From contig JAGPYM010000033.1 of NCBI GenBank assembly GCA_020736575.1, positions 248,001 through 312,000 on the forward strand: a stretch of DNA of 64,000 bases. Reading direction: 5' to 3'. Of this stretch, positions 10,475 through 60,354 are shown piece by piece. A program made the translations under genes and the position numbers. Numbering within the stretch: the stretch's first letter is position 1; the number at the start of each line of letters is the position of its first letter. The notes beneath the pieces were generated by a model. That model had not been told where the DNA came from, did not search any database, and was given only the letters and a program-made list of their open reading frames with translations. Source of the DNA: Thelonectria olida. Taxonomy: Eukaryota > Ascomycota > Sordariomycetes > Hypocreales > Nectriaceae.

Positions 10475-13400
10475 TATCCCTTTTTTTTTTAACTAGGCCC
10501 ACGCCTATAATATTAGGTCAGAATATATATAGCTATTATATATAATTACTATAATATACATCCCTAATAATAGGTTAGTAGTTATATAAGTATTTATTTA
10601 CTATTTTTTAAAATAGTTTTAGTACTATTCTCCCTATTTATTTAATTTTTATATGGTTTTATTATATTATTAAAATATTTAATTTATCCCCCTTACTACC
10701 TTTAGAAATACTTAAATAATTATTTAATCTATTTAAATTAATTATATAAGCACTTTTTAAAATTAAATTATTATAACTAGTAAAGATTAGAAGGTTCTAA
10801 TAGTTTTATTTAATAATATAACTAGTTTAGCTTAATATTTAAGCTAAATAGGGGCAATCTGGCTTATTTAAACTTAATCTAATATAAACCTAAAATATTA
10901 ATATAATACTAATTTTTATTTTTAAAATCTTATAATATTTACTATATTAATAATATACTAAAAGGAATAGGATCTTTTAAAGCTATATTATATAAAATAA
11001 TATAGCTATAAGTATATATATAAATTATATATACTTATTATATAGAATTAAATATTAATTTTATTATATATATTTATTTAATATTATATATTTAAATATA
11101 TATTAATATACTTTAGATTATTTAAAAAGGATTTTAAAGATTAATTATAAATTAGTAAGATTCTAAATTTAATTGCTTTAAAATAATTATATACTTTTAA
11201 GAAGGAGCTAATTAAAAGAGTAAGAATTTTAAGGAAAAATGTTTTAACTAATAAGATATTAACTAATTAGTAATTATTAGTTATTAGTAGAAATTAAGTT
11301 AATATTTATTATATAAATTTTTTATATATATAAAAAATTAATTCTATTTTTATATTATTACTTACCTTCTATTAAAATATTTTATTTTTAAAATAGTATT
11401 AATATATAATTCTTTTTTAAATTAATTTTTAATAGAAATTTTATTCTTATTATAATTATAGTTTTTATTTTTAAGTTCTAATATTCTAATTATTAATTTA
11501 ACTAGTAATAGCCTAATTTAATTAAATATAATAATATCTCTCCTTCTATTTATAAACTAAATCTATTAATAGTAATTTTAAATATCTAATTATATATTAA
11601 TTTTAATTACTTTATATAGCTATTATTATAAGTAATAATAATTAATTTTAATATATTTAAACTACTTAAAAAATATTAAAGAAGATTAAACTATTTAAAT
11701 TTAAAATTTAATTTTATTTTATAAAATATTATATTAAAGTTTATAAGCTTTTAAATTTATATAAGTTCCTCCTTAGTTTTTCTAATTGCTTTTAATAATT
11801 TAATTTACTTTCCTTTTCTAATTTAATTATAAAATATATAATTTATTTAATTCTATTTAAAATAATTATTATAAAAGTAATAGAAAATAAATAATATTTA
11901 GCTTATATATAGAAATTCTTTTTAAATTATATTATAAATAATTTAAAAAGTATTATTAAGTTTATATTTATAATTTAATATATAATTTTAATTTATAAAT
12001 TAATAAAAATTATATTTCCTAATAAAATACTATTTAGGGCTATATACTAATTTATTTTTATTAATATAATAGAAAGTTAATTTTAAAAATAAGAATATAA
12101 TTATAATTATAAAAAGTAAATTAAAAGCTATTAAAAGGAAACTAATTGGAACAATAGGGAAGATATTAGTAAAAGAGCTTAAGCGAAAGTATAAGCTTTT
12201 AATACTAATAGCTCTATTAAATAAGCGTAAGATTAAAGTTAATATAAAATGTAAAAAGAAGAGTAAGGAAAAGTTAAAAATTAAAGATATAATTAATTAA
12301 ACTTTAAAGTAAATAAGGGAGGAGGGAGGTAATAAGTATAATTTACTTAAGAGTTTAGCTAATAAGAATATAGAGAATATTAAAAAGGTTAATTTTATAA
12401 AAGATATTTTACTTATAAGTAGAATATTTTAAAAGAAGGTACTCCTACTATTCTTAATAGTAATTTATTTTAAAAAATAGTATTCTTTTTATATATAACT
12501 AATCTAATTTAAACTATTTATAACTTATATATTAAAGGTTTTTAAATTAATATTTTATATTTAAAGGACCTATTCTAGCTATTTCTATCTATTTTATAAG
12601 TATTTAAATAGAAATACTTTTAGCTCTTTTTAATTAAAAATATACTTTTTAAGTTAATTTTATAAAAGTTTATATTAATTTAATTATAAATAGGTTAGGT
12701 TTTATAAATTAAATTATAAGATATTAGCTTACTTAATAAAAAGGTCTAAATAAATTATTATTATTTTTATTAGTAAGTATATATTTAAGTCTAATTAATT
12801 AAAATTAAAAAGATTTTAATATAATTAGAGCTAATTAGAAGGGATCTCCTTTATATAATTTTATATAAATAGTAAATTAAAATAGTAATAAAGAATATTA
12901 GATTATTTAGAAATAATATAAGTCCGATTTACTTATTTTTAAATTGAATAGCTATTCTATATATAAATAAACTTAATTAGTTTATTTTAAATTATATTTA
13001 TATAAATAAAAAGAATTATAATTCAATTAGTAAGAGAACTATTATTAAAATAGCTATTATTAGTTAACTATTAGAAGTATTAGTAAAATAAGAGGTAATT
13101 AGAAAGAATTAGGTAAATATAGATAATATATAAAGGAACTTACTTACTAATATTTAATATATTTCTAATAGAGTTAGTACTACTAGCTTTTAATTTAAAT
13201 ATTATAAATACTATAATTAAAAAACTAATAATTATAGAAATTAATTAGAATAAGATTAGTATTAATTTATTTCTTTTAATATAATAAAAGAAAAAAGTAT
13301 AAACTAGCTATAAAAGTAGTCTTTCTATTATAATTAGATTGGATAGTATAAGGTATTATATTATAACTCTTTAATATTATAAGGTATTATAAGGTAATAT

Positions 13401-14505
13401 TCCAACTTATAATAGCTAAAAAGCTATAGTAAAACTAGGTAATATATTAAGTATATCTATTAATACTTATATAAATTTTAAACCCCTAGGTCTTAAGCTT
13501 ATTATAGCTATTAATTGATTAAATCTAATTAAAAACTAAAATTATAAAATTATAATACTAATAATTTACCTAACACTAGCAATTAAAAATACTCTTAAGT
13601 AAGATCTTCTAATAAACTAAATATAAGGTATTATAACTATTAGTATAGTACTATTAATATATATATATATATAAATACTTATAGCTATAGTTTTATAAAA
13701 TAGTAAAAAGTTAGTTCTTATTAAAAAAGAAGGTTTATATATAATTTTTTATAATTTTAAGCTATTTAGGGTTTTACTAATAATATAGCTTAAGTTTATA
13801 TTAAAAGTAAAATAATTTATAAGAGGTAATTATATACCCCTTATTTTAAAACTATTATATAATAAACTTATCCTTAAAGCATTTTTTAAAGAAGAGAAAT
13901 TAAAATTAGGCCTATAATTCTAGTATATTAATTATATAGCTTTAGTTATAAAGATCTTATAATTTTAGCTAGTAATAAAGGCCTGAACGGCTAATAGTAA
14001 GATTATATTACTTAAGGAGGTAGGTAATAATCTTTTAAATAGTAGAGTTCCCTTTATATAAAAGGGTAATCTTATTTTAATAGGGGATAAGGTTAATTTA
14101 TAGGTATGGCATTTTATATAAAAGTAATAAAAAGTGTAAGAAGGAGAGTAAAAATATAAAAAAAGAACTTAAAAAATAAAAAAAAAATTAAAATAAAAAG
14201 GGTAAGTTAAAATATAAAATAAAAATTAAAATATTATATAATATAAAATAATATAAAATAATATAAAATATATATTATTTAATATTTAATATAAATTAAT
14301 ATATAATATATAATATAAATTAATAAAAATTAAATAATATATATTAATATATAATATATAATATAAAAAAAATATATAATATTAAATATAAAAAAAATAT
14401 ATAATATTAAATATAAAAAATATATTTTATTAAATTATTAATATAAATTAATATATAATATATAATATAAATAAATAAAAATTAAATAATATATATTAAT
14501 ATATA

Positions 14506-14935
14506 TTCCGGCTTGGGGCGTAGTGGCACGTCTCTGGTCGCAGTTAAGCTGAACCTCTCAGATTGGGAACCTGGGTTGGGGACGAAAAAAACTGCAGTCG
14601 GTTCAATTCCGGCAGCCCGGCAGCCAGTTAAGCGCAAGCAAATTCTGCGACGCTCCTGGGCCACCCGCAAAAGGGCTTTCTGATTGGCCTGCGCTGCGTC
14701 AGTGTGCAAATAATTAGGTACGATTGGTGGATTTCCTACTATTGTGAGAGCTGAAGGCTGGTTTCAGAGGCCGAGGCATATTGTGTTAGCTATTGGTTAG
14801 TTAATTGTGTGGCTGCGTGCTGTAGCCAATTGCCCACAGGGGCGTTTGATTCCGTGCGCGCCTAAAGGCCAGAGGTTTTCCCCCTGTAAATAATATGAAA
14901 TAGGGCTAGCTGTAGAAAATACAGAATATTACAAA
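14506..14935 (+). mobile_element. GC-richer island with tRNA-like head, candidate SINE
   Basis: About 430 bp of ordinary base composition lies inside otherwise RIP-mutated AT sequence, so it probably arrived after, or escaped, the mutation. Its first 113 bases look tRNA-derived. The rest has no coding potential. The tail runs into AT sequence, so the exact 3' end is uncertain. Confidence 0.45.
14508..14620 (+). ncRNA. tRNA-like sequence with A box and B box
   Basis: The 5' acceptor strand CCGGCTT pairs at 6 of 7 positions (one G-U) with AGCCCGG at 14614-14620. A D-arm GGCG-TAGTGGCA-CGTC follows two bases later. The T-arm GTCGG-TTCAATT-CCGGC forms five pairs, and GGTTCAATTCC at 14600-14610 is a perfect pol III B box. 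The middle is too long and has no clear anticodon arm, so a working tRNA is unlikely. A SINE head or intron-bearing tRNA relic fits better. Confidence 0.5.
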
Positions 14936-16753
14936 TGATATTAATATATATATTAATATATAATATATAATATAAAAGAAATTTAAAATATTAAATATAA
15001 AAAATATATTTTATTAAATTATTAATATAAAATTAAATTAAATATATAATTTTTTATAAACTTATAAATAAAATGATTATATAATTTAAATAAATTGAAT
15101 AAATTAAATAATAAAAAAATAAAATAAATAATATTAAGTTAAATTATTATATAATTTAATATATATTTATTTATTAATTATTAAATTAAATAATAAATAA
15201 ATAAATATATATTAAATTATATTTTAATTTATTTTTAAAATTATTATATTTTTAATAAATTATATTATTAAATAAAAATAATAAAATTAAAATAAATAAA
15301 TATATATTATATAATATAATATATTTTATATTAAATTTATATAATATTTAAAAAAAGTTTTATAAAAGCTAGAGCTATAATAGAAAATAAAGGTTAGAAG
15401 CTTTAGGAGCAAATAGAAGAATAGGAAGTAAAAATATTTAAATTTTAATTAGATATTTAGAATTGGTAAATTAAGGCAGTTATAAAAATATAAAGAAGGT
15501 TCTAATTAGTTAAATCTTTATTATAGATATTAATAATTTAATTAGGTTAAATAAGGGGAGGAAAACCCTTATCTTTTATATATAATAAATTAGGTCCTAT
15601 TGGCCCTAGATAAAAGATATATATATTAGATAAAAACTCTATTATTCCTCTATCTAATAGTATTAGAAATACTTATATAAGTGCATTTCTTTTTATTTAA
15701 ATAGTTAGTTAAAAGTAGAAGACTTAAAAGGCATATTAGATTGTTATATATTCTAATGCGCTTTTCTATTTGGGATTGTATGCCTTATTAGGGCGGATAT
15801 TGCCTATTAGGGTAAGAATAGTATATACTAGTATGTTTGCCTTTTTAATTTAGAAATAAGTAAAATATTTTAAATAAAAATATAACTAATAAAGTATATT
15901 AAATAAAAAATATATTATTATAATTCTTATATTTTTATAAATTTAATGATAAATTTTATTCTTTTAATAAGTAAAATATATTTAAATTATTTTATTTTAT
16001 ATATTTAAATTTATATAAAACCTAGTTTTTATAAAAAATAAATAAAATATTCTAAATAAAAATATAACTAATAAGATATATAAGGTAAAAAATATATTAT
16101 TATTAATTAATTAAATTATTTTAAAAATTTTTAAAATATTATATTAATTTATTTTAATTTTCCTTAAATTATTATTTAAATTATAATAATAAATATTATT
16201 TTTAATAAAAATTATTATTATTAAAAGTTGTATTTATAAATATATAATAAATTTAAATAAATAATAATAATTAAAATTTTATTAATAAAATTTATATATT
16301 TAAATATAAATTTTAAATTTTATAATTAATATATATAATAATAATAATATAAATAATTAATTAAAATAATAAATATAAAAAATTTTAAATATAAAAATAA
16401 AATATAAAAAAATAAAATTAAATAAATAAATTAAATTTAATATATAATATAAAAAAACTATATTAAATTAAAATTTATATATATTTTATTAAATTTTATT
16501 AATAAAATTAAAATATTAAATAAAATAAATATAATTAATTTAATTATTAAAAAAAAGTTATTAATATAAATTATTATTATTAAAATTATAATAATTATAT
16601 AATTATAAGTTTTAATAAATATATTATAATTATAATATATTTATAATTATTTTATATAAATAATATATAAAATAAACTTAAATATAATATATTAAATTAT
16701 ATATATATTAAAATTTTAATATAATATATTAAAATTTTAATATAATATATTAA

Positions 16754-16866
16754 ATTATAATTATAATTACTTATTAGTTATAATTACTTATTTATTATAA
16801 TTACTTATTAATTATAATTACTTATTAATTATAATTATTTATTAATTATAATTACTTATAATTATA
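16754..16866. repeat. 17-bp AT minisatellite
   Basis: Six to seven imperfect copies of ATTATAATTACTTATTA inside the large AT-rich element. Confidence 0.75.
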
Positions 16867-18035
16867 TTAAATATTTTTTAAAAAATAAAAATTATAAAAA
16901 AAAAGTTTATTTCTCTTATAAAAAAGCTAAAACTAGCTTAAACTTAAAAAACTCTTTAAAAATCCTTTTAATTAAAAACCCATCCTTATTAACTTTAAAC
17001 TATATAATAAAATATTATTAAATTTATTTATATAAATATATACTATTTAATACCTAATTATCCCATTTTAATCTTTTATTCTCCTTTTTAACTATAAGTA
17101 TATTAAAAATATTATATAAAATCTTATAAAAAAAAAAAAGCAACTTATTAAAAATATTAAAAACTTCCTTATTAAAATATTATTAGTTCTTATTAAACTT
17201 ATTTACTTTTAATTACTTTTTTTTTAAAATATTATTATTATTTTTAATATAACCCTTATACTTTTTAAAAGGCCTAATATTTTTGCTTAAAAATATATTA
17301 ATATATACCTAAATATATTTATAAACCTATATACTAATTGCAAGAGAATATTTTAATATAATTCTATTATACTAATAAAAAGCATACCTAATACTTATAT
17401 CCTCTAATAGTATATAACTAGTATATAGTCTATTTCTATTATAATAGTACTTATATATATTTTTACCTATTTATTCTTCCTTATATAAAAACTTAATTAA
17501 TAAATTAGCAGCTTAAGCGCAAGTAATATTAAAAGCTAGAAACTACTTACTAGTTTTAATTTATTTAGGCTTAAACTTAAAGACATAATTAGGCTATAAG
17601 GGTATTAATAATTATATACTCTTATATATAACTATATACTTATAATAGGAATATTCTTCTTATTAAATAGTATAATAGACTTAAATATATAAGCTAGAAT
17701 AGCATTATAAAAGGCAATAGTAGTCTTATACTTAAAAGTATTCTTATTTCACTTTATAATAGCCTAAGTGGGAATAGTAATACTATTAAACTTATTAGGC
17801 AGCTTATACTTAATAGTAGCAGCTATAATAGTATTATTAGGTGTTATTTGAGTTTATATAGAATAGTATAGCCCTATTAGGCTTAGTAGAGCGGCAGATG
17901 AAAAAAACTAAAAAAAAAAATAGTTATTTAGTTTAAGTTTAATATAATATTTTTAATATTATTTATACTTATATCTAAGTTATATATAGATCTGTTTATT
18001 CTAGTACATACTAGTAGGGTCCACTTATTAAAAGG

Positions 18036-19755: not shown

Positions 19756-22700
19756 ATGCAGGCACATGAATCGGCTGCTCTAAGAGCGCTGTCGTTGGGT
19801 GAGTGTCACCAAGCCGACATGTTCTAGTCAGCCGTTGATGAGGTGGGAGATGGCGGTGGCGTGCGGGGTCTCTCATCACTCCTCATCTTGGAGAACTTGA
19901 TGCATCGGCTATCTCCCGAAAAGGATATCCTACCTTGCAATGTGTTTCGCTTGATAGGAGGGACGAGTACAGGTGGCATTATCGCTATAATGCTTGGCCG
20001 TCTGGTAAGGATATCTAATTAGAGCAAGTTTTGGTCGGTTGCCACTTACAAGCTTCAGGGCATGAGCGTAAAAGACTGCATCACAGCATACCATTCTCTT
20101 TCCAGAGATATCTTCGATGGACCTTGGCGCCCCAAAGCCTGGCAGACTTCTAAAAAGGTGCTGGGCTTAACAGGAGATGCCGAACTTCGTTCTCGCAGGC
20201 TCGAAGAGGCCATCTGCCACATAATAGCGCGGTACCTCCCTGCTGAAGAGAAGAGTGCCCTATTCGGTGAGGAAGAAATTGACCCTTGCAAAGTTCCACT
20301 CTTAAGACCCGGCACTTCGCAAGAGACACCAATTTGCCGTGTGTAAGTTCACTTACCCCCAATGTCTTGCGCTTAACGACCCTCTGATTTCTTGCAGATT
20401 TGTTGTTGCCACACAGCAATCGAATGGCAGAAGAGTCATCCTTAGAAACTACCCCATCCCTTATGAAGCGTCACGCGACATGACCATTGTCGAAGCCTGC
20501 TTGGCAACATCTGCAGCCCCTTTTGTATTTGCTCCACTCACTGCTGGGCCTGAAGGCTGTAGGGAGACTTATATTGATGGTGGGCTCGGTAACAACAATC
20601 CTGTCGCCATAGTACTTCAAGAATCCCGATTACTATGGCCAAGACAGAGTGTCAAGTCTCTGGTTAGCATCGGTACCGGAGCACGGGTACCAACTGAAGT
20701 GAAGCAGAACTTGATGTCTCTGGCTAAGAAAGTTGCCGAGATGATCGTCGACGCGGCCAACGAAGCTCGGGACTTTGAGAGCAACATCCGGTTGACGGAG
20801 CCTAGCATCCATTCTGTGTACTTTCGACTAGATGTCGCCGAATCCATGGCTCGCATTGGTTTGGCAGAGTGGCGAATGCTTGGGGCAATCGCACAGCGGA
20901 CACGGTCGTGGATATTCGAAAACCACGATCTTCTAAACAGATGTGTGGTAACTCTCGGCGGTATCCTTCTGAACTGTCTGTGTATTACTCTAAGATACTT
21001 GTCCAAATGCTAACAACCAGAATCAGACGAGGCGAAGTGCTATGCAACGGCCAAAAAGGCTGGACAACCACTTACTGCTCCTCTCCCTCAATTGTCTGTC
21101 GAGATCAAGCCGATCGAAGGCGATTTTGCAGACAACCTCGTCATTACTGACCCCGAGAACTCATCAAAGTTGAGCATCGGTCTTTGGCGCACCGTACGTC
21201 TTCCTGAGGATGGGAAAGTTTACGACCTCCCGGCAGGGTTGGGCAAATTCCCCCTTGTAGAAGCCAGCCCGTTTAAGGAAAAACTCGCAGCGTACGGGAT
21301 AAATGATGCGGATCTAGTGATTCCCATGTATGACCGCGAGGCGATGTATTTGGAGCTGCGTCTCAACAACTTCGACTTCTCTAGCCCTCAAAGGCCATTT
21401 GCAATTCGTCCGTACATTGGCGGCATCAATGCAATCACGGGAGAAAGCATAGAGACAGATGTTGGAGTTGCAGCGGCCACGAGGAACGCGGCCCAGACAC
21501 GTTTAGGCTTCCCTGAAACCAACGAAGTGCTCGGCGGGAGGCCTAGAGAGAACCAGGACTATATTATAACGGATATATCCATTCATGATATTGCTGTCCA
21601 TCCTCAATGGCTTGACGGAATTGCAGTTGCTCCCGGGCGTGTGAAGCAGTTCGTTTGTGTTCCATTCGGTTCAGGAAAGTCTATTGAAGCTCAGAAACGA
21701 GGAAAGGAGATTTTTGGAGGCATCCAGCTCGAGATCATCCCAAGCCTACCCTTAAGTCACTTGAGAAAACCGGCTACAAAAGACATCGAGCTGACCTTCC
21801 ATACGACTACTGACCGGAGGTTCACTATATGGATTGACCAGTGTGCTTTAGTCTGGGATCTCCTGCTCAAAATAAAAAATGAACACGGAGCTGGGGACCT
21901 AGACTTCAACCGACTCCTTTTCGCTGGACGAGGATTGGAGCCGCTTGGGACTCTGGACTATTACGGGATTAAAAACCAGTCTATCATACACCTCGTCTAC
22001 AAGCTACGCGGGGGCGGGCCGGCGGGGGGCGGTCCGGGGCCTTCGAAAAGGATGGCCATAGGAGCTGGCGGAGCCATCTCTCAGAACATTAAGGCCGATC
22101 GGCAGCCTCCATGGATCTGGGATTACCGTCGAGGAAAACTGATCAACATCCAAATTGTGAACTCTTTGTACTTTGAGGAGCTCACTGGGATCGTTGCCCC
22201 AACGACGCCGATCGACTTCAAGAGGTACCTCGAATTGGGCGTCCCGTTTTTCCGATACTATTTGGAAGACGCAGAGGCTCTTAGCGGAAGCTTCGACAAT
22301 ATCCAATCGGTGGGACCATCTATTAAGGATAATGATCCCGATGACGCCAGTGACCCTAGCGGAGGATACTGGAGTCAATCTCCCAACAGCTGTTCAAAGT
22401 GCAATGAAAATGCCCCTTACCGGCTGTGAGTAGTATATTATTGACTAGAACACCGTATACAACTGACAATCGTGTAGGTTGAGACCATGCGAGCATTCTG
22501 TATGCAGAGCCTGCTATGAATCCATATCAGTAATGCCTGAGATGAAAAACGGGATATCTACCATGTTCTCTCCGTGTCCAGTATCGAGCTGCGGTCGCAA
22601 CATCGCTAGAGCTGTGGCATGGCCGCACACTTCAGAGGATATAGATCTGCGACAGCTATATACTGCCATGCCGTTACGAGTGAGGTCTGCCGACACGAAT

Positions 22701-22757
22701 ACTACGAAGCCGTTCAGGGGTGTCGGGCCCCGTAGCCGAGCCAGGTGGTCACAGTAA
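19756..22757 (+). CDS. Patatin-like phospholipase fused to a ubiquitin-like domain and a RING-like cluster
   Basis: Six exons (19756-19798, 19850-20004, 20059-20342, 20398-20960, 21021-22425, 22478-22757) add to 2730 nt with consistent phases, giving 909 residues. The patatin domain fills about residues 1-350. It has the oxyanion motif DGGGVRG (15-21), nucleophile elbow GTSTGG with Ser54, and catalytic Asp221 in YIDGGLG. Residues about 365-600 carry a fungal module with QDYII, WLDGIAVAPG and GGIQLEIIP. A ubiquitin-like fold follows at 603-680, with LLFAGRGLEPLGTLDYYGI and an end at KLRGGG before a Gly/Pro linker. A further module (WDYRRGKLINIQIVNS) and a RING-like set follow: Cys806, 809, 821, His823, Cys826, 829, 850, 855. 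The first intron is placed so that LSL joins DGGG; its GAG acceptor is unusual. Lipid hydrolysis coupled to ubiquitin-type signalling is inferred. No neighbour suggests a pathway. Confidence 0.8.
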
Positions 22758-23270
22758 CAAGGTACTTTAGATTGGTTTGGCGAAATGAGGACCAAGATCT
22801 TGCTTCATTTGTTTTAAAAGAATCCTCCTGTATTTAGTGAGTTTTTATTAAGCTGACTGATGGGTTAAGGATGAAAAAGACCCATGATCTCTAACTAATA
22901 AAGCTATGCGCTATAGTACGCGACTTAATGTCACGGCTCGTGTCGATTAACAGTCACGTGTTATAACCGTTCCTATAAATTTCTAACTATTATATATAAC
23001 TGCTTAAAATTATTAAAAATTACTTTATAAACTAGAGTAAACTATAAAATAGAATTTTTAAAATTTATTTAATAAACTCTTATAAATCTTTTAAATTATT
23101 TTAATATTTTAAATATATTTATTAATATATTAAATTAAATTTAAACTTTTTTAAATTTAAATATATTTTAATTATATTTATTTATTTTAAATATATTACT
23201 AAATATAATAACTTATTATATTATTTAAATATTAATATTTTAATTTTTCTATTAATATTATTTATTAAAA

Positions 23271-24260
23271 TAAGCCTAATATTAATATATAATAAAAGTT
23301 AATATAAGTAAAACCCAGCTTTATATTTATTATAATAAGCTTTTTTATAAGGTTTATAATTAGCTTTTAAGTGAAAATTCTTATTAAATAAACCTTATTT
23401 AAAAAACCTTATTTTAAGCTTTTAATATAAAAGTATAACTTTTTTAAATTCTAATTTATATAATTTAATATAATTAACTGCCTACTAATTAAATAAACTA
23501 TGATATAAAAAGATAATATTAATATAATAGCTTAATATCTATTAAATTATATAAATATCCTTAAGTATATTTATCTAACTAAAGAGCTTAAAAAGTATAT
23601 TAAATAGTTATAACTCTTTAATATTCTTATATTAGCTAATATAAATATACTTTTAAAAGTAATATAAAAAATCAATTTAATCCTTTTAAGTTACTATATT
23701 CTAATTAAAAGACTAAATATATAAAAAAACAATTTTAAATTTTTTAATAGGAAAGTTAGCTAACTTAATTGCCTTTTAAATTAAATAAGAAATAATAGGC
23801 TTAATTAAAATAACTAATTATTTTTAAATAAATATAAGAATATAACTTAAAGTTATTATTAGTATTTGTTAAAATAAGCCTGGTACTAGCATATAATAAA
23901 GGTCGATACAGGCAAAACCCAGCCTTGCATCTATTATAATAAGCTTTTCTATAGGGTTTACAATTAGATAACTTAAAGTTATAACTTTAAAAGCTTTTAT
24001 ATATAATAGTAATAATTTAAATAGTTGCTTAAAAAGCTATAAAGAAAAAATTTAAAAATAAAAAGTAAGTTAAATAGGCAAGTGGATATAAGGGTTAAAA
24101 AGTAGGGGGGCTAAAAGGGTTAAATAAATAAGAAAGTTTAAAAATAGATTAAATAGGTTTAAAAGTAATTAAACTAATAGAAATAAGTAAGGTAATTAAA
24201 TAAAAAGATATATAAAAGAGTTAATATAATAATAAAAGTTACTAATTATAAAGTTTTCTA
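23271..24260 (+). repeat. Dispersed repeat A, copy 1
   Basis: Opens with ATTAAAATAAGCCTAATATT and can be followed, with interruptions, through AAAGTAAGTTAAATAGGCAA to AAAAGTTACTAAT. The same order of segments recurs at 59284-60490. Differences are mostly transitions. No coding capacity remains. Confidence 0.75.
23857..23967 (+). mobile_element. 111-bp short interspersed insertion with 15-bp duplicated target
   Basis: The segment is flanked on both sides by ATAACTTAAAGTTAT (23842-23856 and 23968-23982). The second copy of repeat A has this 15-mer only once, uninterrupted, at 60188-60202, so the pre-insertion state is visible. The inserted sequence retains more G and C than its relatives at 23271, 58605, 58790 and 59290, for example GGTCGATACAGGC against AGTTAATATAAGT, so it is younger or less mutated. 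Confidence 0.8.
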
Positions 24261-25157
24261 TTAATATAAATTTAAAACATTTTAATTTCTATTATTTAAA
24301 ATTAATTAATTATAAAATACTAATTTATAAGTAAATTTCTTAGCTATTTTAAATATTAATTACTATTTATATAATATTAAAATTATAATAATAAATACTA
24401 ATTTATAAAAAAAAAAGCTTTAAAAACTCTAATAAAAGAAACTAATAATAAAAAAAGTAAATATATAGCTTTAAGCTCTTTTTTTTATTTAATTATTATT
24501 TTTACTATAAGCTTAATAAAATAGTTTTTAACTTAAACTTATAAGAGCTTTTAAATGCTAATAGAGCTAGTAGTAACCTTTTAAATAAATATAACTATTA
24601 GTTTAGTTTTAATTAAAACTAAAGCTACTATTATAATTTTTATTACTAAGTTTAAGCCTAGCCAATTATGCTTTTTAAAGGAAATTTTCTAATTAGATCT
24701 CTTTTTCCTTTTTTTCTTTTCTTTTTTTCTCTTATTTTTATTATTTTCTTTATCTCTTTTTATCTTTTTTATTACAGCCCATGTTAGTAAGTAGTTATAT
24801 ATTAAATTACCCTTATAACTTCTTTACTAATCTTAACCCAAACTGCACTAGGGATAGATTATAATAAAATACAAACTATTATAATCTTAGGATTACTATA
24901 ATCCAAAATTATTATAATCTAGAAATACTATAATTTAAAAAAGCACTTTCTTAGTATTTAAACACATTTATTAGCATATTAAATAGAACCTAAGCTTCCT
25001 TAACTTTTAATATAATTTAATTATACTTATTTACTTTAAGTATATTACTAAATATAGTACTATGCCTTTTACTACTTAGACCTTAACGCTCTAATCTCTC
25101 TGCTAATATAAACCCAAAACCCTCTAGTCTTATCCATTAGGAATTGACTAGATCGTT

Positions 25158-27080: not shown

Positions 27081-27804
27081 TCGGAATCCTGGGAGGGGCC
27101 ACTCAACAGCCGATGAGAAGTGTTCTGCGCTCAGTAAGCGGATGCCTCCTAGTTAACAAGAGAACAATGTTTTGGCTCTTTACCAAGGACGACGCTCGGG
27201 ATCATCCAAAATCGCGATGCTCACCTTGAATTCGGCCCCGAGACCCCGATCGGCCGCTGAGTCAGCGCGTTGGTATTCAAAATAGGGCTTAGCGTGATCT
27301 ACTAAGGCAGTGCTCGAAAAAGAAACTCTGGAGGCCTTGGGGCATTGAAGCCTCGCATAGCGGAACCGGCACGGTTCGGGGTGAGACACTAGACAGAAGC
27401 CATCATTGTCGGTATCTACAATCAAAGGTTCCGCCGTGACACGGTATCGGCACTTGGGCCTTGCCGTAATACCGGAGATTGGCTGCGTCATGCCGACTAC
27501 CAGCCCGGTCTGAAGGCCCTGACTCGCTGATTACCCTGGAATGCGTCGTCATAGTCGGTGCGCAGCTGCCAAAGCTGTCAAACCTGAAGAGATTTGGGCT
27601 GAGTGTGTCCCAACAATGTAGCGGCGTGTCGGGGTCTATCTCTTTTCCGACTCATACAAATATAAACTCATCTTACAACTCCGTGTTCTTCAAGTCCCAT
27701 AACCGCATATCACAGGCTCCTCTTGTACCATACTACTTCTTTTCTTTCTCTCTCCTTTTCAGTTTCCACATCATACCGCCCGTCTGTGTGCACGACTGGC
27801 CACG
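27081..27804. promoter_or_regulatory. Upstream region of the ABC transporter
   Basis: Just before the transporter start lies a CT-rich stretch (TTCTTTTCTTTCTCTCTCC near 27738-27757), common in fungal core promoters. Upstream sequence includes several CGG/CCG triplets of the type bound by Zn2Cys6 regulators, but no paired site stands out. Confidence 0.35.
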
Positions 27805-30800
27805 ATGACAGCGGATTCCGTACCAACAAACAGGGGCAGTTCCGCCTCCTCTGGGGTGACTGAAGAGGAGGACAAGGTCTACGCCGGATTTGAGCCTATC
27901 ATGAGCAGCCGACTGGCTCACAAAAGGAGCCCATCCGATCTAGATGATGCACACCTGCGACACCACAGGCGAGATACCGAGATCGTGATGGAAGAAGCTG
28001 ACAGGGCCGAACTGACGCGGCTCGCCACAGTTCTGTCGCGAAGGCAGTCAACCGTTGCCCCTGGCGGCGTAAGCCGTGTTTCTACAACGACAATGGTGCA
28101 CGAGGATGACCCGGCGATAGACCCGGCAAGCAGCCATTTTGACGTAAAGAAGTGGCTTCACAGAACCCTTCGTCTCCATCGCGAGGAAGGAATCGGTAGC
28201 AGGCAAATCGGTGTCGTCTTCAAAAACGTCAGCGTTTTTGGCTCAGGGGATGCACTTCAGATTCAACAAACCGTGGGGTCTCTCCTGTCTGCGCCGCTAC
28301 ACGTTGGTGAGCTCTTCTCGTTTCGCAAGAAGACGCCCAAGAAGATTCTCAACCAATTTGACGGCTTGATTCGAAGCGGTGAGCTCCTTCTGGTCCTTGG
28401 GCGGCCTGGCTCTGGATGCAGCACGCTCTTGAAAACAATCAGCGGAGACGCAAACGGATTGGAGTTTGGCTCGGAGACCGATGTTCACTATAATGGTATC
28501 CCGCAGAAACAGATGAAGAAGGAGTTCAAGGGAGAGGCGATTTATAACCAAGAGGTATGTGCTGTTCACCCGAAGCGTGGTCAATACTTGACCTTGAGAG
28601 TCTCATATATACTGACCTTTGGTTTTATGTAACACTTTTTAGGTCGATAAGCACTTCCCGCATCTCACGGTCGGTCAGACGCTCGAATTCGCTGCCTCTG
28701 CTCGTACGCCATCGACTCGAATCAACAACCTCTCTCGCAAAGAGTGGTGCAAGTATAGTACTCAAATTGTCATGGCTACCTTTGGCCTTAGCCATACCTA
28801 CAACACCAAAGTTGGCAATGACTTTGTGCGAGGTGTATCAGGAGGCGAGCGCAAGCGAGTCAGCATTGCCGAGATGGTTCTGGCGGGATCTCCCATTACG
28901 GCTTGGGATAACAGGTAGGCCAGACACCTGGTTGTTTCGAGAGCCATTTCATCTGACGATTCCCAGTACCCGCGGCCTTGATTCCGCGACGGCTTTCGCG
29001 TTCGTGAGAGCTCTCCGCATAGCTTCCGACCTGGCAGACTCGGTCAGCGCCGTCGCCATCTACCAAGCCAGCCAGTCCATTTACGACCTCTTTGACAAGG
29101 TCACGCTTCTCTACGAGGGGCGTCAGGTCTACTTCGGCCCAGTGGCAGATGCTAAAGCCTACTTTGAGAGACAGGGCTGGTATTGCCCCCAACGGCAGAC
29201 TACAGGAGACTTCTTAACTGCCGTGACGAACCCGTCCGAGCGTAAAGCACGCAAAGGCATGGAGAACAAAGTGCCCCGAACTGCCGAAGACTTTGAACGC
29301 TACTGGAGAGAGTCTCCCGAATACGCCCTACTCCAGACAGAAATAGCAGAGTATGAGGCTCAGTATCTCGGGGAGGGCCAGGACCAGGACCAGCAGATCA
29401 ACAATCTTCGAGAGCACAAGAGTTTACAGCAGGTCAAACGAACTCGCTCTGGCTCTCCCTATCTCATCAGTGTACCCATGCAGATAAAACTCAACACTGT
29501 TCGAGCCTACCAGCGAGTGTGGCAGGACATTTCAGCGACTATGATGTCCTGCATGACTCAGCTTGTCCTGGCTCTCATAATCGGCTCCGTTTTTTACGAC
29601 ACTCCAGATGCTACAGCTGGATTCTACGCCAAAGGTTCCGTTCTTTTCATGGCTATCCTTCTTAACGCGCTTACAGCTATCGCCGAGATCAACAGCCTCT
29701 ACTCGCAACGCCCCATCATTGAGAAGCATGCCTCATATGCTTTTTATCATCCTGCTACTGAGGCTGCAGCCGGAATTGTCGCCGATATACCCATCAAGTT
29801 CGTCACGGCAGTCATGTTCAACGTCGTACTCTATTTCATGGCTGGTCTTCGAAGAGAGGCTGGCCCGTTCTTCCTATACTTCCTGGTAACCTACGTCATC
29901 ACATTCGTCATGAGTGCTGTCTTCCGGACCATGGCCGCCCTAACCAAGACCATTTCTCAGGCCATGGCGTTGGCAGGTGTTCTAATCCTCGCACTGGTCG
30001 TTTATACAGGGTTCGTCATCACTGTGCCTTCGATGCCTGACTGGTTCGGATGGATCCGCTGGGTTAACCCCGTGTTCTACGGATTTGAGATTCTGATCGC
30101 CAATGAGTTTCATGGCAAGAGGTTTCCTTGCTCAGACGTCGTGCCTTCATATACACCGCAAGTTGGAGACTCGTGGATATGCTCTATTGCCGGGGCTATC
30201 GCTGGCGAACATGACGTTAGTGGCGATCGGTTTATTGAGACCACATACCGCTACTCGTACTCGCATGTTTGGCGAAACTTTGGTATTGTTGTTGCCTTTC
30301 TTGTCTTCTTCATGACAATCTATTTCGTTGCCACGGAGTTAAATTCGTCCATGTCGAGTACTGCCGAAGCCCTGGTGTTCCAGAGCGGACATGTCCCTGC
30401 ACACCTCCGCCAGGACAGCAGCGCCACACCAACCAATGAAGAATCCGGGCCATCTGAGACAACGCGACACCTACAGCAAGACAATGTCAGCGCTAATACT
30501 GTTGAGACCGGGACGGATATCTTCTCTTGGCGTGATGTTGTCTATGACATCCAGATCAAGTCTGAGGAAAGGCGACTTCTCGACAACGTGGCCGGTTGGG
30601 TCAAGCCTGGCTCCCTCACCGCCCTTATGGGCGTGTCTGGCGCTGGTAAGACGACGCTCTTGGATGTTCTTGCTCAGCGAGTCTCTGTCGGCGTGGTTAC
30701 TGGAGATATGTTTGTGAACGGCGCGCCGCTGGGTGCCAGCTTTCAGAGAACCACGGGATATGTCCAACAGCAAGGTACGTCTCGGAGTCTAACATCAGCC

Positions 30801-32545
30801 AATCAGGATACTAACAACCAACATAGATCTGCACCTTGAGACCGCTACTGTGCGCGAGAGCTTGAGATTCAGCGCAGATCTGCGGCAACCTCGGTCTGTC
30901 AGTCAGAAAGAAAAGTACGAATACGTCGAAAAGGTTATCAGTATGTTGAACATGGAAGACTATGCCGATGCTGTTGTCGGTAGCCCTGGAGAGGGACTCA
31001 ACGTCGAGCAACGAAAGCTACTTACTATCGCAGTCGAACTGGCTGCCCGACCAAAGTTCCTGTTGTTTCTTGATGAGCCTACGAGCGGCCTCGATTCCCA
31101 GAGTTCTTGGGCCATTTGCTCGTTTTTACGCAAGCTCGCCGATGCGGGCCAGGCAGTCCTCTGTACCATCCATCAGCCCAGCGCCACCCTCTTCCAAGAG
31201 TTTGACCGATTGCTCTTCCTCGCCCGAGGTGGCAAGACGGTCTATTTCGGAGACATCGGCCAGGATTCACGGACCTTGCTCGACTACTTTGAGAGCCACG
31301 GTGCCCGGCACTGCGCCGACGGCGAGAACCCCGCGGAATACATGCTCGAGACTGTCAACGGCGATAACGATTGGCATTCGGTGTGGAAAGCAAGCGACGA
31401 GTTTCAAGGTGTTCAGGCAGAGCTTGACCGACTTCACTCTAACAAGGGCCAAACTGCCACCGAAGAGGTGCAAGCAGATGCCTCTCTTGAATTTGCCGCT
31501 CCGTTCTCGTCACAGCTTTGGGCCGTTACTTACCGCGTGTTTCAGCAGTATTGGAGAATGCCTACCTATATTGCCTCCAAGCTGCTGCTTGGTGTCGCCT
31601 GCGGGCTCTTTATTGGCTTCACTTTCTACGATGCCGATGGCAGCCAGGCTGGAATGCAGAATGTTATCTTTTCCGTCTTTATGGTTACGACCATTTTTAG
31701 CACCCTCGTTCAACAGGCAAGTACCCCGGTGTCTCTTACTGCTAGTATCTGAACCTATAGCTAACATCGTCTAGGTGCAACCGCTCTTTATTACTCAGCG
31801 GTCACTTTACGAAGTTCGAGAACGGCCTAGCAAAGCTTACTCCTGGAAAGCCTTTATGCTAGCCAACATTGCCGTTGAGATCCCGTATCAGGTCCTTACC
31901 GGTATTCTCTTATTTGCCTGCTTCTACTACCCTGTCGTCGGTATTCAGAGCTCAGAACGTCAGGGCCTAGTCCTTCTTTTTACCATCCAACTCTTCATCT
32001 ACGCCAGCTCTTTTGCGCACATGACCATTGCCGCGCTTCCTGACGCCCAAACTGCTTCCGGTATTGTCACACTCATCACCCTTCTCGCCACTACATTTTG
32101 TGGTGTCATGCAGACGCCAGATGCCCTCCCCGGCTTCTGGATCTTCATGTACCGAGTTTCTCCTTTCACCTATTGGATTGGCGGTATCGCCGCAACAGAG
32201 CTGCATGGACGGACAGTTGAGTGCTCGACGAGCGAAACATCCGTTTTTAACCCTCCAATCGGGCAAACTTGCGGAGAGTACTTGGAGTCATACCTTCAGA
32301 CGGCACCAGGACAGCTGCAAAACCCCAACGATACTTCATCCTGCCGTTACTGTAGTCTCAGTAACGCTGATCAATACATGGTGAGATCGTCCATCTTCTG
32401 GAGCGAGCGCTGGCGGAACTACGGCATTATGTGGGCTTATATCGCCTTCAACATCTTCGTTGCCGTGTTGACCTACTATATCTTCCGGGTTCCCAAGGGT
32501 AGGTCAACGCCGCTCCATGGAAAGCGAGATAAGAAGGCGGCCTGA
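27805..32545 (+). CDS. PDR-type (ABC-G) multidrug ABC transporter, full size
   Basis: Five exons (27805-28554, 28643-28914, 28967-30774, 30827-31716, 31775-32545) give 1496 residues, the normal length for fungal pleiotropic-drug-resistance pumps. The order is NBD1-TMD1-NBD2-TMD2. NBD1 has the degenerate fungal Walker [10 protein letters not shown] (199-207, Cys for Lys) and signature [13 protein letters not shown]2 has a canonical Walker [10 protein letters not shown] (896-904), signature LNVEQRKLL and Walker [15 protein letters not shown]. Each half ends in about six hydrophobic segments. The last intron starts with GC (CAG|GCAAGT), a GC-AG intron. The protein would sit in the plasma membrane and use ATP to expel hydrophobic compounds. 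It is intact although the regulator relic beside it is not. Substrate cannot be told from sequence. Confidence 0.93.
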
Positions 32546-36366: not shown

Positions 36367-37396
36367 ATGGCTTCTCAAAATAACCCCCGTGGCGACGAGG
36401 CTGTGAGGATCTCGATTGCTCTGAGTGTCGTTGGAGATCTCTTCGTCCTAATGCGCCTATACGCTCGATTTTTCATGGTCACGAAGCCAGGTTTCGAGGA
36501 CTTGTGCCTTGCGGTTGCGATGGGGTTTGCAACAGCCTTTACAGTCCTCATGAAGGTCCAAGCTGACAATGGGCTGGGCATGCACCAGTGGGATATGACC
36601 GAGGGAGACCCCCTTCAACCGCTAAAGGCAAGATACATCGTACATCCACGTGTTGGAGTGTTCTGACATTTGATAGCCCTTCCTATTCAGCGTTCTTTGC
36701 TACTATTTCGCCCTCGCTTTTGTCAAGGCCACGTTTCTGTTCCAGTATCATCGAATTTTCGCCGTCGCCGAGCCTCGAATGCGCGGCATAATATACCTTG
36801 TCGGAGCTTTCGTCTTTCTATACAGCCTCATGACAGTACTTGTGACTGTCTTCCTGTGTGTGCCAGTCGAGAAATTTTGGCGGCCCGGCGTGCCCGGCGT
36901 CTGCCTGAATAGAATGGCAGTCTGGTGCACCAGCGCAGCCCTCAACATTGCCACAGATTTTGTCATAATCCTCCTTCCCATGCCCACTTTAAAGCAACTA
37001 CGCTTGCCGAAATACCAAAAGCGTGCCATCATCCTCGTTTTCGCTGTCGGTGGCCTCACATGCGCCGTCAGCATCGCACGGTTGCAGAGCCTAGTCAAGG
37101 TCGCAGGCAGCAACGATATTACGTACGAAAATGCCGGTACAGCCACATGGAGCGCCGGCGAACTGAACATGGCCCTCATTTGTGCGAGTATGCCGGGTCT
37201 GCGTCCCGTGTTAGCCCAGCTCAGGCACGGCCTGCTCGGTGTCTCAACTCATTCGAACACGGGCGATGATCATAGCCAACCATCTCGAGCAAGAGGTTGG
37301 CCACTTAGTCCCGTGGACCATTTCGTCGATGAAAGCCTGCGTCAACAGTCCAATACGATGAGCGACGATGAACTTCCACTACAGAGCAGGTGCTAG
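36367..37396 (+). CDS. Fungal rhodopsin-domain integral membrane protein (Pth11-like, no CFEM)
   Basis: Two exons (36367-36627, 36677-37396) give 326 residues. The start MASQNNPRGDEAVRIS leads straight into the first membrane helix. The family pattern follows: LMRLYARFFMV, LCYYFALAFVKATFLFQYHR, MRGIIYLVGAFVFLYSL, the loop CVPVEKFWRPGVPGVCLNR, then ALNIATDFVIILLPMP and RAIILVFAVGGLTCAVSIARL. The join depends on a GC-AG intron (AAG|GCAAGA...TTTGATAG, 49 nt, TTCTGAC branch). This is the only choice that keeps phase and restores the family sequence. Members are predicted 7-TM proteins, some of them receptors in host or surface sensing. This one lacks an N-terminal CFEM domain and has a polar tail. 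Confidence 0.8.
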
Positions 37397-45338: not shown

Positions 45339-47269
45339 TCACCACCACTCTGTGTCTGTGGTTCTCCAAGTGTTGGAGCCGCAGTGAACTTCCCCCGCAC
45401 CCAAATGATGCGAGAACCAGTCATCCTGGTACGTCACATTGAAGCCAGCTTCTGCATACACCTCCGTCACGGCCTTCATGATGATATCCTCGCCATCAAT
45501 GACAGGACCCCAGGGGTTGGGAGCAAGGACTAGCGAACCGGTCAAGACGACGCCGTTGATTGTACCAGGGTAGAAAGCTACGACTTCGTCGTCAGGGTTG
45601 ACTTGTCGTCGCTGGTTCTTCGGCTGGGCGGCCTCGAGGATGGACTTGGCCTTGGAAGCAGGTCCTCCAGCGAGACGCTTCTTTTGGCTGTGGGACGAAG
45701 TAGAGAGGACGTTTAGTCTGGGCGAGTCGGTTGAGTTGCTGGCGCATGTCCAGCCCTTGCGGTCGATGTAGTAAAATGTCGCAGGGACGCGGAAGATTTC
45801 ATCGTCAGTGATGCCGGTCTCACGCTTGAGAATCTCGATGTTGCCTTCGATACGCTTGGCGGATTCCTTGTTGATAGTCTCAAAGCCGTCAAACTTGAGA
45901 ACCTCATCGATGGTCTGCTTAGGAAGACACAGGTCTGGGCCATCGGCTGCGAGACGGGGTCGCGAAAGGGCCTTCTTACGCCCGTGGCCGTCAGCAGAAG
46001 CCTTCTTGAGGATCTCAACACCTGCGAGAGGGTCGTCGGCCATCAGGACCCAGCCGCGCTCGTTGTCGGCTGGGAGAAATTGGAGGAACTCGTCGACGTG
46101 GCCGACGGCTAACCAGGCTGTGTCCAGGGCGAGAGGATCTTGGACCTCTTGGGCCTTGAGGAAGTCAAAGATCAAAGGCTTTGTTCCGTTCCTCTGACCC
46201 ATGATGATTCGGCCTGCGGGATAGTTCTTCCCCCGGTGCTCGTGAGGGGGAATAGTCTCCAGGTTACCGGTTGAATCTCTGGTCTCGCCGGAGCCTGGGT
46301 GCTGTACCGCGCCGACCTTGTTGTTTCGGAGCTGGTGGAAGACGTCTCGGCCGGATTGACGGTAGTCTTGGGCTGATCGGACCATGACTCGGAGGACGAT
46401 GGGTCCATCAGGGCCGGGGATACTGGTGTAGCCGGGCTCGAAGAAGTCCTGAGTCCAGATATCCTGATTATCGAATAAGAAGACGGGCTCGCTGATGCCC
46501 GCATCTGCAACGTTATCTTTGAGATCAGCGACGAACCTGCCCTGAGTGCTGTTCAAGTAATCAAAGGTAGTGAAGACTCGCTCGACGAGCTGCACATGGT
46601 GATGCGTCAGAACGGGAGCAACCCTGAAGGCAACCGAATCGCTCGCCTTCTCTGCCCCATCCCGGATGGTGAAATAAATCTTGGCCTTTCCGTCCCAGCC
46701 GTTGGGTCGGCGAACATCCCGGGCGTCGATGCCCAACTCAAGACCATCCTTGAGCTCTTCAGCCGTGAACGTGTGGTTTGCAGCGACGTACGTCCACTCA
46801 GTACCCTCTTTAATAAAGACTCGTACCTTTTCAGCGGCGGTCTTGTCGGTGACGTGAATTGACCCCGTAGCAGAGGCACTCAGTTTCGTGCAAGGAAGAG
46901 TCCTCAGAGGCGCAAGATACCTCGGGTTCCGTTGGATGTTGCCCACAGCGTCGTTGCACTCATTGAGATACTCCTCGGTTCCATCGATGTCTTGGCTTGG
47001 GCCCCATTTCTTAGAGCATCGTTGGCTAGTGTCACCGATGTTGGCGAGGAACAAGGCGCCTCTTTTAGACGTCCATTCCGATTTTCCTTTGATGTCTGTG
47101 TCGCCTTTGATGTCGACCTTGCCGTCTCGGTTGGTGTCCGCTAGGATGGTTGCTTTCAGAGCATAGCAAGAGTTGCACAAGGCTGCGTCTTCATTAGCTT
47201 GGGGATCACATAGATGGTGAGTTACATACCCAAGACGACAACCGCAGCTTTGTTGCTCAAGAGACGCAT
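45339..47269 (-). CDS. Secreted fungal protein-arginine deiminase (PAD)
   Basis: Two exons (47269-47230 and 47182-45339, 47-nt intron) give 627 residues. The small first exon completes a signal peptide, MRLLSNKAAVVVLALCNSCYA. An EF-hand-like loop DTNRDGKVD follows, then the PAD catalytic domain. Residues expected of the guanidine-modifying fold are present: Asp259 in IWTQDFFEPGY, His375 and Asp377 in VGHVDEFLQFLP, and the nucleophile Cys614 in GEVHCGSNT near the C-terminus. The enzyme should convert peptidyl-arginine to citrulline with calcium, here outside the cell. Fungal PADs resemble bacterial forms more than animal ones, which fits horizontal acquisition (recalled family knowledge). The gene is intact. 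A relic of another copy lies 0.5 kb downstream. Confidence 0.9.
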
Positions 47270-49645
47270 GTTGATGTTTCTAGCCTCACCAAGATAGCTG
47301 TTTGCTAGACTACCTCTTCTAAGCACTTCACGCCAAAACGTGGTTTCAAAGCCTTTTAAGTACTCATCGTTCTCACATAAAAACATGCAGCCACCTCTTG
47401 CTTGCTTGTAATTTTAAGCACAGCCCACTGGGTGGGAACTCGCTGCCGAGTGTGAAGTTTTGAATGCAAGATGTCATTAGTTCAATCGTAAAACTCGATC
47501 TTGGCATGGGGAGAATGCAATTGGCTAGTGGTTTTATCGCCAAATGAGCTCATCCTTCCAGTCTCACTACTCTCTATTACGAAATGGCGAATCATCCGGG
47601 GTATTTTGTTGCACTGCCCCGTAAAGAGTGTGCAGGGAGCAAGTTGCCAAGCCACGCGCTGACGTTCCCAAAGCATTGCACTTTGAAATTATAGCACCGC
47701 AATCATGCAGCCAATGCCCAGGACTTGAGGAACTTTAATGCGCTTGGCCTGAACCTACACCATCCTGAGAGGGGAGGCTTACGGAACGTCTTTTAGTTGG
47801 CATGCAAAAAGAAAAAAGTCCGGCAAAAGATGGAGGAGGCTTTATTCCACAGTTGTATGATTATCGTGCATATGTGAGAATGGCTTGCGCTCACTCCACT
47901 CTCCAGCAACTTCTTTCTCACACGTGAATCAGCGGAGAATCGCATGAAATGGCCTATATATCAGTCAAGCAATAAATTACAAAACCCTACACGGTGCAGA
48001 CGAAGGCGCTTTATGTAAAATCCGCCTTGTTTCAGCCCCATATGCCGGCAGTCGCTATTGGGTCGGGTGAACAGTTGGTAGCCTCTCCTGGCGGTCTCTA
48101 CACTGAAGTAAACAAACCCAACCCTGGCGCTATAGATCTTGTTAGCGACTGGTCTTACCTGAGAAAATCCTCTAAGAAGATAGCAGTTGTTTATAATTCG
48201 CTTGTCTTTGCATACTGCGCTGTGTTTGAACTTGACTTCCCGGCGCTTTTGCCAGAGGATAAGTTTTTGTAGAAACGCAGCCTCCTCGCCGAGTTAGAGC
48301 CTTCCCGACTGTGATAACCATTTAAGTTTTAGCTTGTTACACTCCTTTTCCCCCGCGAAGAAGTTCAAGGTATCTTTTGGCAATCTTCAGTAGAAGAGTG
48401 AGGCTAGCCTCAGAAGTGCGAGACCAACAAACTCAGAGCTGGCCCTACCTAAATATGTCCCAACATGATAAAGGAACTTTTCAAAGAGATCAAGGTGTCC
48501 ATAGTTCGAGGTGAACCATCGTAACCTAACGTAGCGCTTGTCAAGTGCCGCAAGGGCTGATTTTGCGGGTTATTAGGTATTGACAGGGAGTCGTCATGCC
48601 TGAAACACGTCGTATTTAGACTTAGTTGATTGCCACGTGCTTTTCCGTGAATTATCCTTTGATTCGCGTTGCCTTGTTGCCAAGACGTAGCAATCCAATA
48701 TTAAGGGCACTTCTAAGCTGTGGATGTAACAGCCGAATACGCATATTGTTCGTCTGAAAACACTTGACCATTCTGCCGAATCGCAAGCATGCACCGCCAT
48801 GTGTTGAATCTTTAATTTCCCTCAATGCAAGAGCTGGACGAGCCATTCATAGTACATGAATTAGCACCAGTAGCTCCCCGTGGGCCGTTCCGTGTTTGTT
48901 CATTGCCAAGGGGTCGAAACGTTGCGCTCACCACCAGCTCAGGCTAAAGCAGTTAGGTTCCTTCCTGCCGTATACTCGTGTCTCAGGCTGCCCATGGATA
49001 CCTTGGCATAAGACCTGCTGCCTCGGACTTCCCCCTTTGGCTGTAGTTCTCGTGTCATCCTCACCCCTGATACTCTGCTTCGCTTCTATTTGCCCGCATG
49101 CTCATCAACCGGTCTGAAGCCTGCCTTGGTTTTGTCTCGTATTATACACCAGGAACGTTCGTTATGCGCCCTTCTGGTATTTGCTAAGTGGAGGCATTTG
49201 GGTTTGCAACCTCTCGTTGCTAATCTGGTATATGTGATATCCCCTGACCCGTTGAGCAACTAAGATTCCCTAATAGCATCGCCACTCTTGGCCCCATTGC
49301 TGTGCGTCTCAGTATTCCCGTCCATCCCGCCTTGGCTGGGAGTGAGTCAAGGCACACTAAGCGGAAGAGCCCGGCATCCTTCGCTAGTATACGATAAGAC
49401 CAAAACATGATCATCGTTGCCCTGACGTTGCTGATCCATAAGACGCGTCATGTGGCTTGCCTTGAGTTGGAAAGTGTTAAAAAAGGATTTGTGGAATGAT
49501 TAAGATCCCCGCTTCTACTTCCAATCGCCCGCGCATGTGCTCAAGGCCCCTCAACTTCAGCCCCGACACTTGATTAAGGTATCAGCCCTCCTAGTGAACG
49601 GCCAGGCATTTCATTGCCGAACCCCGTTCTTAACGGCGACCCAGA
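47270..49645. other. Intergenic, no gene seen
   Basis: Likely upstream region of the deiminase gene at the left end. Short open frames elsewhere (for example 47994-48272) match nothing I recognise. Confidence 0.45.
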
Positions 49646-60328: not shown

Positions 60329-60354
60329 GGGGGGGGGGGGGGGGGGGGGGGGGG
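60329..60354 (+). repeat. Homopolymer of 26 G
   Basis: A run of 26 G within repeat A copy 2. The same place in copy 1 (about 24104-24109) has six G. Confidence 0.9.

What the first reader, a model, noticed from the sequence alone, without database searches (positions are those of the whole stretch)
19756..22757. One polypeptide with a patatin lipase, a ubiquitin-like domain and a RING-like cluster
A six-exon model with consistent phases gives an unbroken 909-residue protein. It has an intact patatin dyad (Ser54 in GTSTGG, Asp221 in DGG), a ubiquitin-like fold ending LRGG, and a C-terminal Cys/His set spaced like a RING finger. A lipid-cleaving effector tied to ubiquitin-type conjugation parts in one chain suggests a self-contained signalling or defence protein. 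It is intact in a window where most neighbours are dead, which hints at selection or recent arrival.
Basis: partly seen in the sequence, partly recalled or inferred. Interest (0 to 1): 0.9.

Follow-up and report, generated by a model that had tools for sequence, protein, structure and literature searches.

The report
Fungal lipase with built-in ubiquitin tag
A mould gene joins a fat-cutting enzyme, a module otherwise found in bacteria and a ubiquitin-like tag in one protein, and it belongs to an undescribed family that may work as a cell-death or defence switch.

Summary

Following it out gave more. The stretches around the UBL form an unnamed module (here MD and AGG) that is a free-standing bacterial protein in ten phyla, with no UBL match in the 80 loci kept. 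In fungi a modifier sits in its linker: ubiquitin-like here, near-true ubiquitin in many relatives, SUMO in two. Nearly all scored ones keep the mature Gly-Gly end, mostly followed by a third Gly.

The same chassis carries a second lipase, SesB-type, in 41 of 42 further proteins, including a paralogue of this genome annotated as one protein. Patatin and SesB are lipase effectors of fungal NLRs; no NACHT or NB-ARC domain matched here.

Best reading: an NLR-like lipase effector on a non-NLR chassis, with an embedded modifier whose Gly-Gly end is used. Activity, cleavage and conjugation are inferred, not shown.

The parts
19756..22757 (+). whole six-exon gene, 909 aa
   Evidence: orthologue P0001
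19756..19798 (+). exon 1
19850..20004 (+). exon 2, with Ser54 at 19966-19968
20059..20342 (+). exon 3
20398..20960 (+). exon 4, with Asp221 at 20576-20578
21021..22425 (+). exon 5: module half MD, UBL, module half AGG, first RING Cys pair
22478..22757 (+). exon 6: rest of the RING-like cluster and tail
19789..20614 (+). patatin-like phospholipase domain, residues 12-233 (introns inside)
   Evidence: Pfam PF01734 89.9 bits, cut-off 27.7
21110..21775 (+). MD: first half of the bacterial-type module, residues 379-600
   Evidence: 80 of 80 bacterial loci kept; no Pfam match
21782..22015 (+). ubiquitin-like domain, residues 603-680
22001..22015 (+). KLRGG tail, residues 676-680, followed by Gly681
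   Evidence: K, R, G, G identical in 17 of 17 patatin-type rows, Leu in 16, next Gly in 16
22046..22330 (+). AGG: second half of the module, residues 691-785
   Evidence: 77 of 80 bacterial loci at E<1e-3
22391..22592 (+). RING-like cluster C-x2-C-x11-C-x-H-x2-C-x2-C-x20-C-x4-C, residues 806-855 (intron inside)
   Evidence: ligands shared with P0001 and P0002; Pfam sub-threshold in the whole protein

Best explanation
It is a real single gene of a fungus whose contigs match Thelonectria olida. It encodes a lipase-effector protein of an undescribed family. Shown by sequence: an N-terminal patatin (as in fungal NLRs and bacterial CBASS effectors), then a module of two halves (MD and AGG) that in bacteria is a free-standing protein, with a ubiquitin-like domain placed in the linker between the halves, then a RING-like cluster. 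Inferred: the module holds the lipase silent and senses a trigger, and on activation the lipase attacks the cell's own membranes, as in patatin NLRs. Inferred more weakly: the conserved ...LRGG|G end is read by the cell's ubiquitin machinery, either by cleavage after Gly-Gly, which would free lipase-MD-ubiquitin from AGG-RING, or by attachment of that piece to a target.
For: Gene and order. Fold of the UBL (in P0001). Same chassis with a second NLR-type lipase: of 42 proteins P0032-P0073, 41 have SesB, 42 MD, 36 AGG and 28 ubiquitin at domain E<0.1. One is the paralogue of this genome: annotated as one 1238-aa protein, B0T10DRAFT_412368, holding SesB, MD, ubiquitin and AGG, 100% identical to my 1329-aa model over the aligned part (57% of the query region). 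The SesB Ser is kept in 34 of 36 rows with a letter there (43 rows, 7 gaps) and the His in 40 of 40 (3 gaps). Of the 78 proteins listed below that block, 55 carry PF00931, PF05729 or PF24883 (NB-ARC, NACHT and a NACHT-like family; names recalled; counted by eye). Patatin and sesB-like are listed as NLR class 1 effectors (PMC4986451, passages); PLP-1 needs its patatin for cell death (PMC10197012 and PMC12881547, passages). Bacterial module without UBL. The rows grouped as fungal (24) and bacterial (52) are split by one branch, 100/99. Gly-Gly use: tail columns 0.98 mean pairwise identity against 0.37 for the UBL body and 0.22 for the linker after it; of 25 scorable SesB-type ubiquitins 21 end in GG, and the next residue is Gly in 19 of those; P0020 and P0026 carry SUMO there (52.7 and 52.1 bits to this genome's SUMO-like gene, -1.3 to its ubiquitin), also ending GGG.
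Against: No activity, expression or cleavage data. At least one other five-column window inside the UBL body also reaches 0.98, so tail conservation alone is not decisive. 4 of 25 scorable SesB-type ubiquitins do not end in GG in the alignment, and 17 of 42 proteins gave no scorable ubiquitin. The RING-bearing paralogues C99 and C57 show no LRGG-type end in their UBL region, while C155 has LRLRGGG but no lipase was noticed upstream in its ORF list (not scanned with Pfam), so lipase and Gly-Gly do not strictly go together. P0001 has no Pfam ubiquitin match. No cell-death link has been found for this family itself.
Confidence: 0.5

Rival explanations
1. The UBL never leaves the chain. It folds back on the RING or the lipase and keeps it inactive, as the UBL of parkin does (recalled), and Gly-Gly-Gly is only a hinge.
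For: UBL and RING lie in one chain; the UBL body has diverged (median pairwise identity 0.32); the linker after the tail is variable, as a hinge would be.
Against: A hinge does not need Lys, Arg and both Gly fixed in 17 of 17 rows, nor a SUMO-type Gln-x-Gly-Gly end in the SUMO-carrying relatives. SesB-type proteins match the window's RING in 0 of 42, with one separate RING-like pattern, below Pfam's cut-off, in P0071.
Confidence: 0.3
2. A housekeeping lipid enzyme or quality-control E3 with no part in immunity or cell death. The lipases are ordinary metabolic domains.
For: No functional data; members without a recognised lipase exist (C99/P0011 by Pfam; C57 and C155 by ORF list).
Against: Both lipases found on the chassis belong to NLR effector classes; the P0001 patatin matches a PADLOC 'Effector, Phospholipase' model (E=3.7e-39) and NCBIfam's CBASS lipase, the latter below its cut-off.
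Confidence: 0.25
3. Gene-model artefact: a patatin gene and a separate UBL-RING gene run together.
For: No transcript evidence here, and P0001 is itself a predicted protein; several splice choices stay open.
Against: P0001 has the same order in 920 aa and is 58% identical over the module; patatin tails precede MD in P0003 and P0004; exons 4 and 5 are 60 bp apart, with a CTAAC branch-like site in the intron.
Confidence: 0.04

Closest known systems
Patatin NLRs such as Neurospora PLP-1 (patatin/NB-ARC/TPR)
   Same: N-terminal patatin of the same family; the patatins of this genome that align best are 34-38% identical (one only over 122 aa), and the one at C2 lies about 0.7 kb from an NB-ARC match on the same strand.
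   Different: No NB-ARC, NACHT or repeat match; MD-UBL-AGG-RING instead.
SesB-like NLRs
   Same: The other branch of this family carries the SesB-like lipase; below the family block most listed SesB relatives are NLR-type proteins (55 of 78, counted by eye).
   Different: Same missing NOD and repeats; ubiquitin inside.
Fungal NLRs with a ubiquitin-clan (Crinkler) N-terminus
   Same: A ubiquitin-clan fold in a fungal NLR-type protein (PMC9815663, passages).
   Different: There it is the N-terminal effector annotation; here a Gly-Gly-ended UBL lies inside a bacterial-type module.
CBASS phospholipase CapV, with Cap2 ubiquitin-like conjugation of its nucleotidyltransferase
   Same: Patatin effector related to the CBASS lipase; ubiquitin-like conjugation in a defence system (PMC10097602, search listing and start of abstract).
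   Different: Far below the NCBIfam CBASS lipase cut-off (97 against 200 bits, P0001); no nucleotidyltransferase match in the chain; here the modifier is built in.
Ubiquitin-ribosomal protein fusions and polyubiquitin (recalled)
   Same: Internal ...LRGG followed by more protein.
   Different: Those have ubiquitin at the N-terminus or in a chain; here it sits in the linker of another module, behind a lipase.
Unnamed bacterial MD-AGG proteins (Streptomyces, Myxococcota, Chloroflexota and others)
   Same: MD in 80 of 80 and AGG in 77 of 80 loci kept.
   Different: No UBL or RING match in 80 of 80; halves a median 42 aa apart (77 measured).

Membership tests
Patatin-like phospholipase | PF01734 above its cut-off | tested here: met
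   89.9 bits against 27.7
Patatin-like phospholipase | Ser in GxSxG and Asp in DGG | tested here: met
   Ser54 and Asp221, both kept in P0001
Patatin-like phospholipase | lipid hydrolysis | not testable with these tools
   needs an assay
Ubiquitin-like domain | PF00240 above its cut-off | tested here: not met
   22.8 bits against 25.4 in the window protein; the C86 paralogue reaches 99.9
Ubiquitin-like domain | beta-grasp fold | tested here: met
Ubiquitin-like modifier | Gly-Gly end exposed and used | tested here: inconclusive
   KLRGG present and conserved but internal; use not tested
RING finger | eight zinc ligands in C3HC4 order | tested here: inconclusive
   order met, last pair C-x4-C instead of C-x2-C; a 62-aa cut-out reaches 28.6 against 27 over positions 1-28 of 46 of PF14447, the whole protein only 20.9
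RING finger | RING fold in a structure model | tested here: inconclusive
   pLDDT mostly under 50 there in P0001
NLR | NACHT or NB-ARC domain | tested here: not met
   no Pfam match listed at E<=5
NLR | C-terminal repeats (TPR, ANK, WD40) | tested here: not met
   no Pfam match listed
NLR | N-terminal effector of a known class | tested here: met
   patatin; class listed in PMC4986451
CBASS CapV | NCBIfam NF041079 equivalog cut-off | tested here: not met
   orthologue P0001 97.1 against 200 bits; the window protein itself not run

The most novel reading that the evidence does not exclude
Fungi took up a bacterial protein and built a 'modifier slot' into its linker, filled with ubiquitin in some lineages and SUMO in others, and coupled it twice to NLR-type lipases. 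On a trigger the chain is cut after Gly-Gly, and the lipase leaves with a ready-made ubiquitin end that tethers it to, or marks, its target: an effector that carries its own conjugation tag.
Probability: 0.25. Interest if true: 0.92.

Novelty: new variant of a known kind. Interest (0 to 1): 0.76.

Why it matters
If right, fungi hold a second family of lipase-armed effector proteins beside the NLRs, built on a module of bacterial type, and surveys that start from NACHT or NB-ARC would miss it. It would also be a case of ubiquitin and SUMO as exchangeable parts at one internal site, which makes cleavage or conjugation of a possible cell-death effector directly testable. The bacterial module itself, in ten phyla and without a Pfam match above cut-off in the ten stretches scanned, is an open target.

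Tried and rejected

Selections: the 42 SesB-type proteins are the block P0032-P0073 of 120 listed (176 hits); 40 carry a source name, all ascomycetes by recall, and two (P0049, P0065) none; P0069 has no SesB match but was labelled SesB in the tree. The 17 patatin-type rows leave out the window's own P0005 and short fragments; P0025 falls among them in the tree. The tree used 68 rows. Bacterial loci: the tool kept the best 80 of 324.

Full report
What was checked. The window is part of a 52.5-Mb assembly. Two paralogues' contig lengths (C99, 310134 and C86, 587541) equal those of annotated Thelonectria olida proteins P0011 and P0032, so the genome is taken to be that species. Other splice choices remain open; the 909-aa one gives LSLDGGGVRG, as in P0001.

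The chassis is shared with a second lipase. A search of this genome with exon 5 found paralogous stretches at C86, C99, C57 and C155, besides ubiquitin genes. C86 reads through 13 exons (eleven GT-AG introns, one GC-AG) as 1329 aa: SesB-type hydrolase with CHSLGG, MD, ubiquitin ending LRLRGGG, AGG, no RING. It corresponds to one annotated protein, B0T10DRAFT_412368 (P0032, 1238 aa), 100% identical over the aligned part, which holds all four domains. In the same search 42 proteins formed a block: SesB in 41, MD in 42, AGG in 36, ubiquitin in 28 at domain E<0.1; with a ubiquitin profile, 31 of 42. The Ser is kept in 34 of 36 rows with a letter there and the His in 40 of 40, of 43 rows. Below the block, 55 of 78 listed proteins carry NB-ARC, NACHT or NACHT-like Pfam families (counted by eye, names recalled). 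In an MD tree the 42 SesB-labelled rows and the 17 patatin-type rows are each one side of a branch (100/99), which fits one gain of each lipase. P0071 adds a sub-threshold RING match to the SesB form. Caution: only the window protein and P0001 hold a whole patatin; P0003 and P0004 hold its end; the rest were typed by the tree.

The module is bacterial in type. The MD-UBL-AGG profile matched 324 stretches in bacterial and archaeal genomes that encode a relative; the best 80 were kept, those with a lineage label all bacterial. All 80 have MD and 77 have AGG at E<1e-3, none has a UBL or RING match, and the halves lie a median 42 aa apart (77 measured, 25-103). Median ORF length is about 360 aa. 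Of ten bacterial module stretches scanned, none has a Pfam match above cut-off. Tree labels name ten phyla, and 24 rows grouped as fungal separate from 52 grouped as bacterial by one branch, 100/99 (grouping of unnamed rows told under Tried and rejected). So in fungi a modifier sits in the linker of a bacterial-type protein. Direction of transfer is inferred from the bacterial breadth and was not tested.

The modifier and its tail. In 17 patatin-type rows, K-L-R-G-G has mean pairwise identity 0.98, the UBL body 0.37 and the linker after it 0.22; K, R, G and G are the same in 17 of 17. A random draw of five columns out of 77 reached that value in 4 of 100000, but at least one other contiguous window inside the body also reaches 0.98. 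In the SesB form, 25 of 42 proteins had a scorable ubiquitin: body match to this genome's ubiquitin 0.58, Gly75 and Gly76 1.00 of the letters aligned, GG in 21 of 25, third Gly in 19 of 21. P0020 and P0026 carry SUMO in this place: 52.7 and 52.1 bits to this genome's SUMO-like gene, -1.3 to its ubiquitin, ending GGG. P0027, P0028 and P0030 also have GGG there, modifier type unresolved. C99 and C57 show no LRGG-type end, and C155 has LRLRGGG without a lipase noticed in its ORF list.

How it probably works. Patatin and sesB-like domains are counted among NLR class 1 effectors (PMC4986451, passages), and the patatin of PLP-1 is needed for cell death (PMC10197012, PMC12881547, passages). The P0001 patatin matches a PADLOC phospholipase effector model and, below its cut-off, NCBIfam's CBASS lipase. 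By analogy the lipase is the executor and the module its control part; that is inference. The kept Gly-Gly-Gly ends, in ubiquitin and SUMO alike, argue that the end is read by processing or conjugating enzymes. Autoinhibition by the UBL, as in parkin (recalled), is the main rival. CBASS offers a parallel, not a relative: there a defence enzyme is conjugated by a ubiquitin-like route (PMC10097602, listing and abstract start).

Setting. The gene lies in a GC-normal stretch (18-23 kb) between AT-rich blocks with RIP-like dinucleotide ratios, while the gene itself shows none. Neighbour ORFs with recognisable domains exist. Two papers on fungal NLRs were searched for ubiquitin (PMC9815663, PMC12258605; [quoted passage not shown] neither passage mentions this family. 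Novelty rests on these and on the listings, in an incomplete library.

Noticed in passing
window 45342-47279 (-): 646-aa open frame with a nearly full protein-arginine deiminase domain (PF03068, E=7e-114), an enzyme family that, as recalled, is unusual in fungi.
   Followed up: no
window 27703-32545: PDR-type ABC transporter domains in three open frames, and a fungal rhodopsin-domain ORF at 36677-37393; speaks against 'most neighbours are dead'.
   Followed up: partly
window 10500-17900, 22950-25000, 58700-60500: Blocks of 15-16% GC with RIP-like dinucleotide ratios; the first two flank the gene island.
   Followed up: partly
G000 C93:211436-212941 and C93:68258-69762: DUF3435 (Starship captain-type, recalled) matches on the same contig, with similar-scoring matches on C123 and C150.
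   Followed up: no
L031-L110: Unnamed bacterial MD-AGG protein family, in 7 of 80 loci beside a small protein whose representative is helix-turn-helix; L032 carries a C-terminal extension that looks repeat-like by eye, without a Pfam match.
   Followed up: partly
L028 (C155): Paralogue with MD, UBL ending LRLRGGG and AGG, no lipase noticed.
   Followed up: partly
P0020, P0026: SUMO instead of ubiquitin in the same slot of the module, ending QIGGG.
   Followed up: yes
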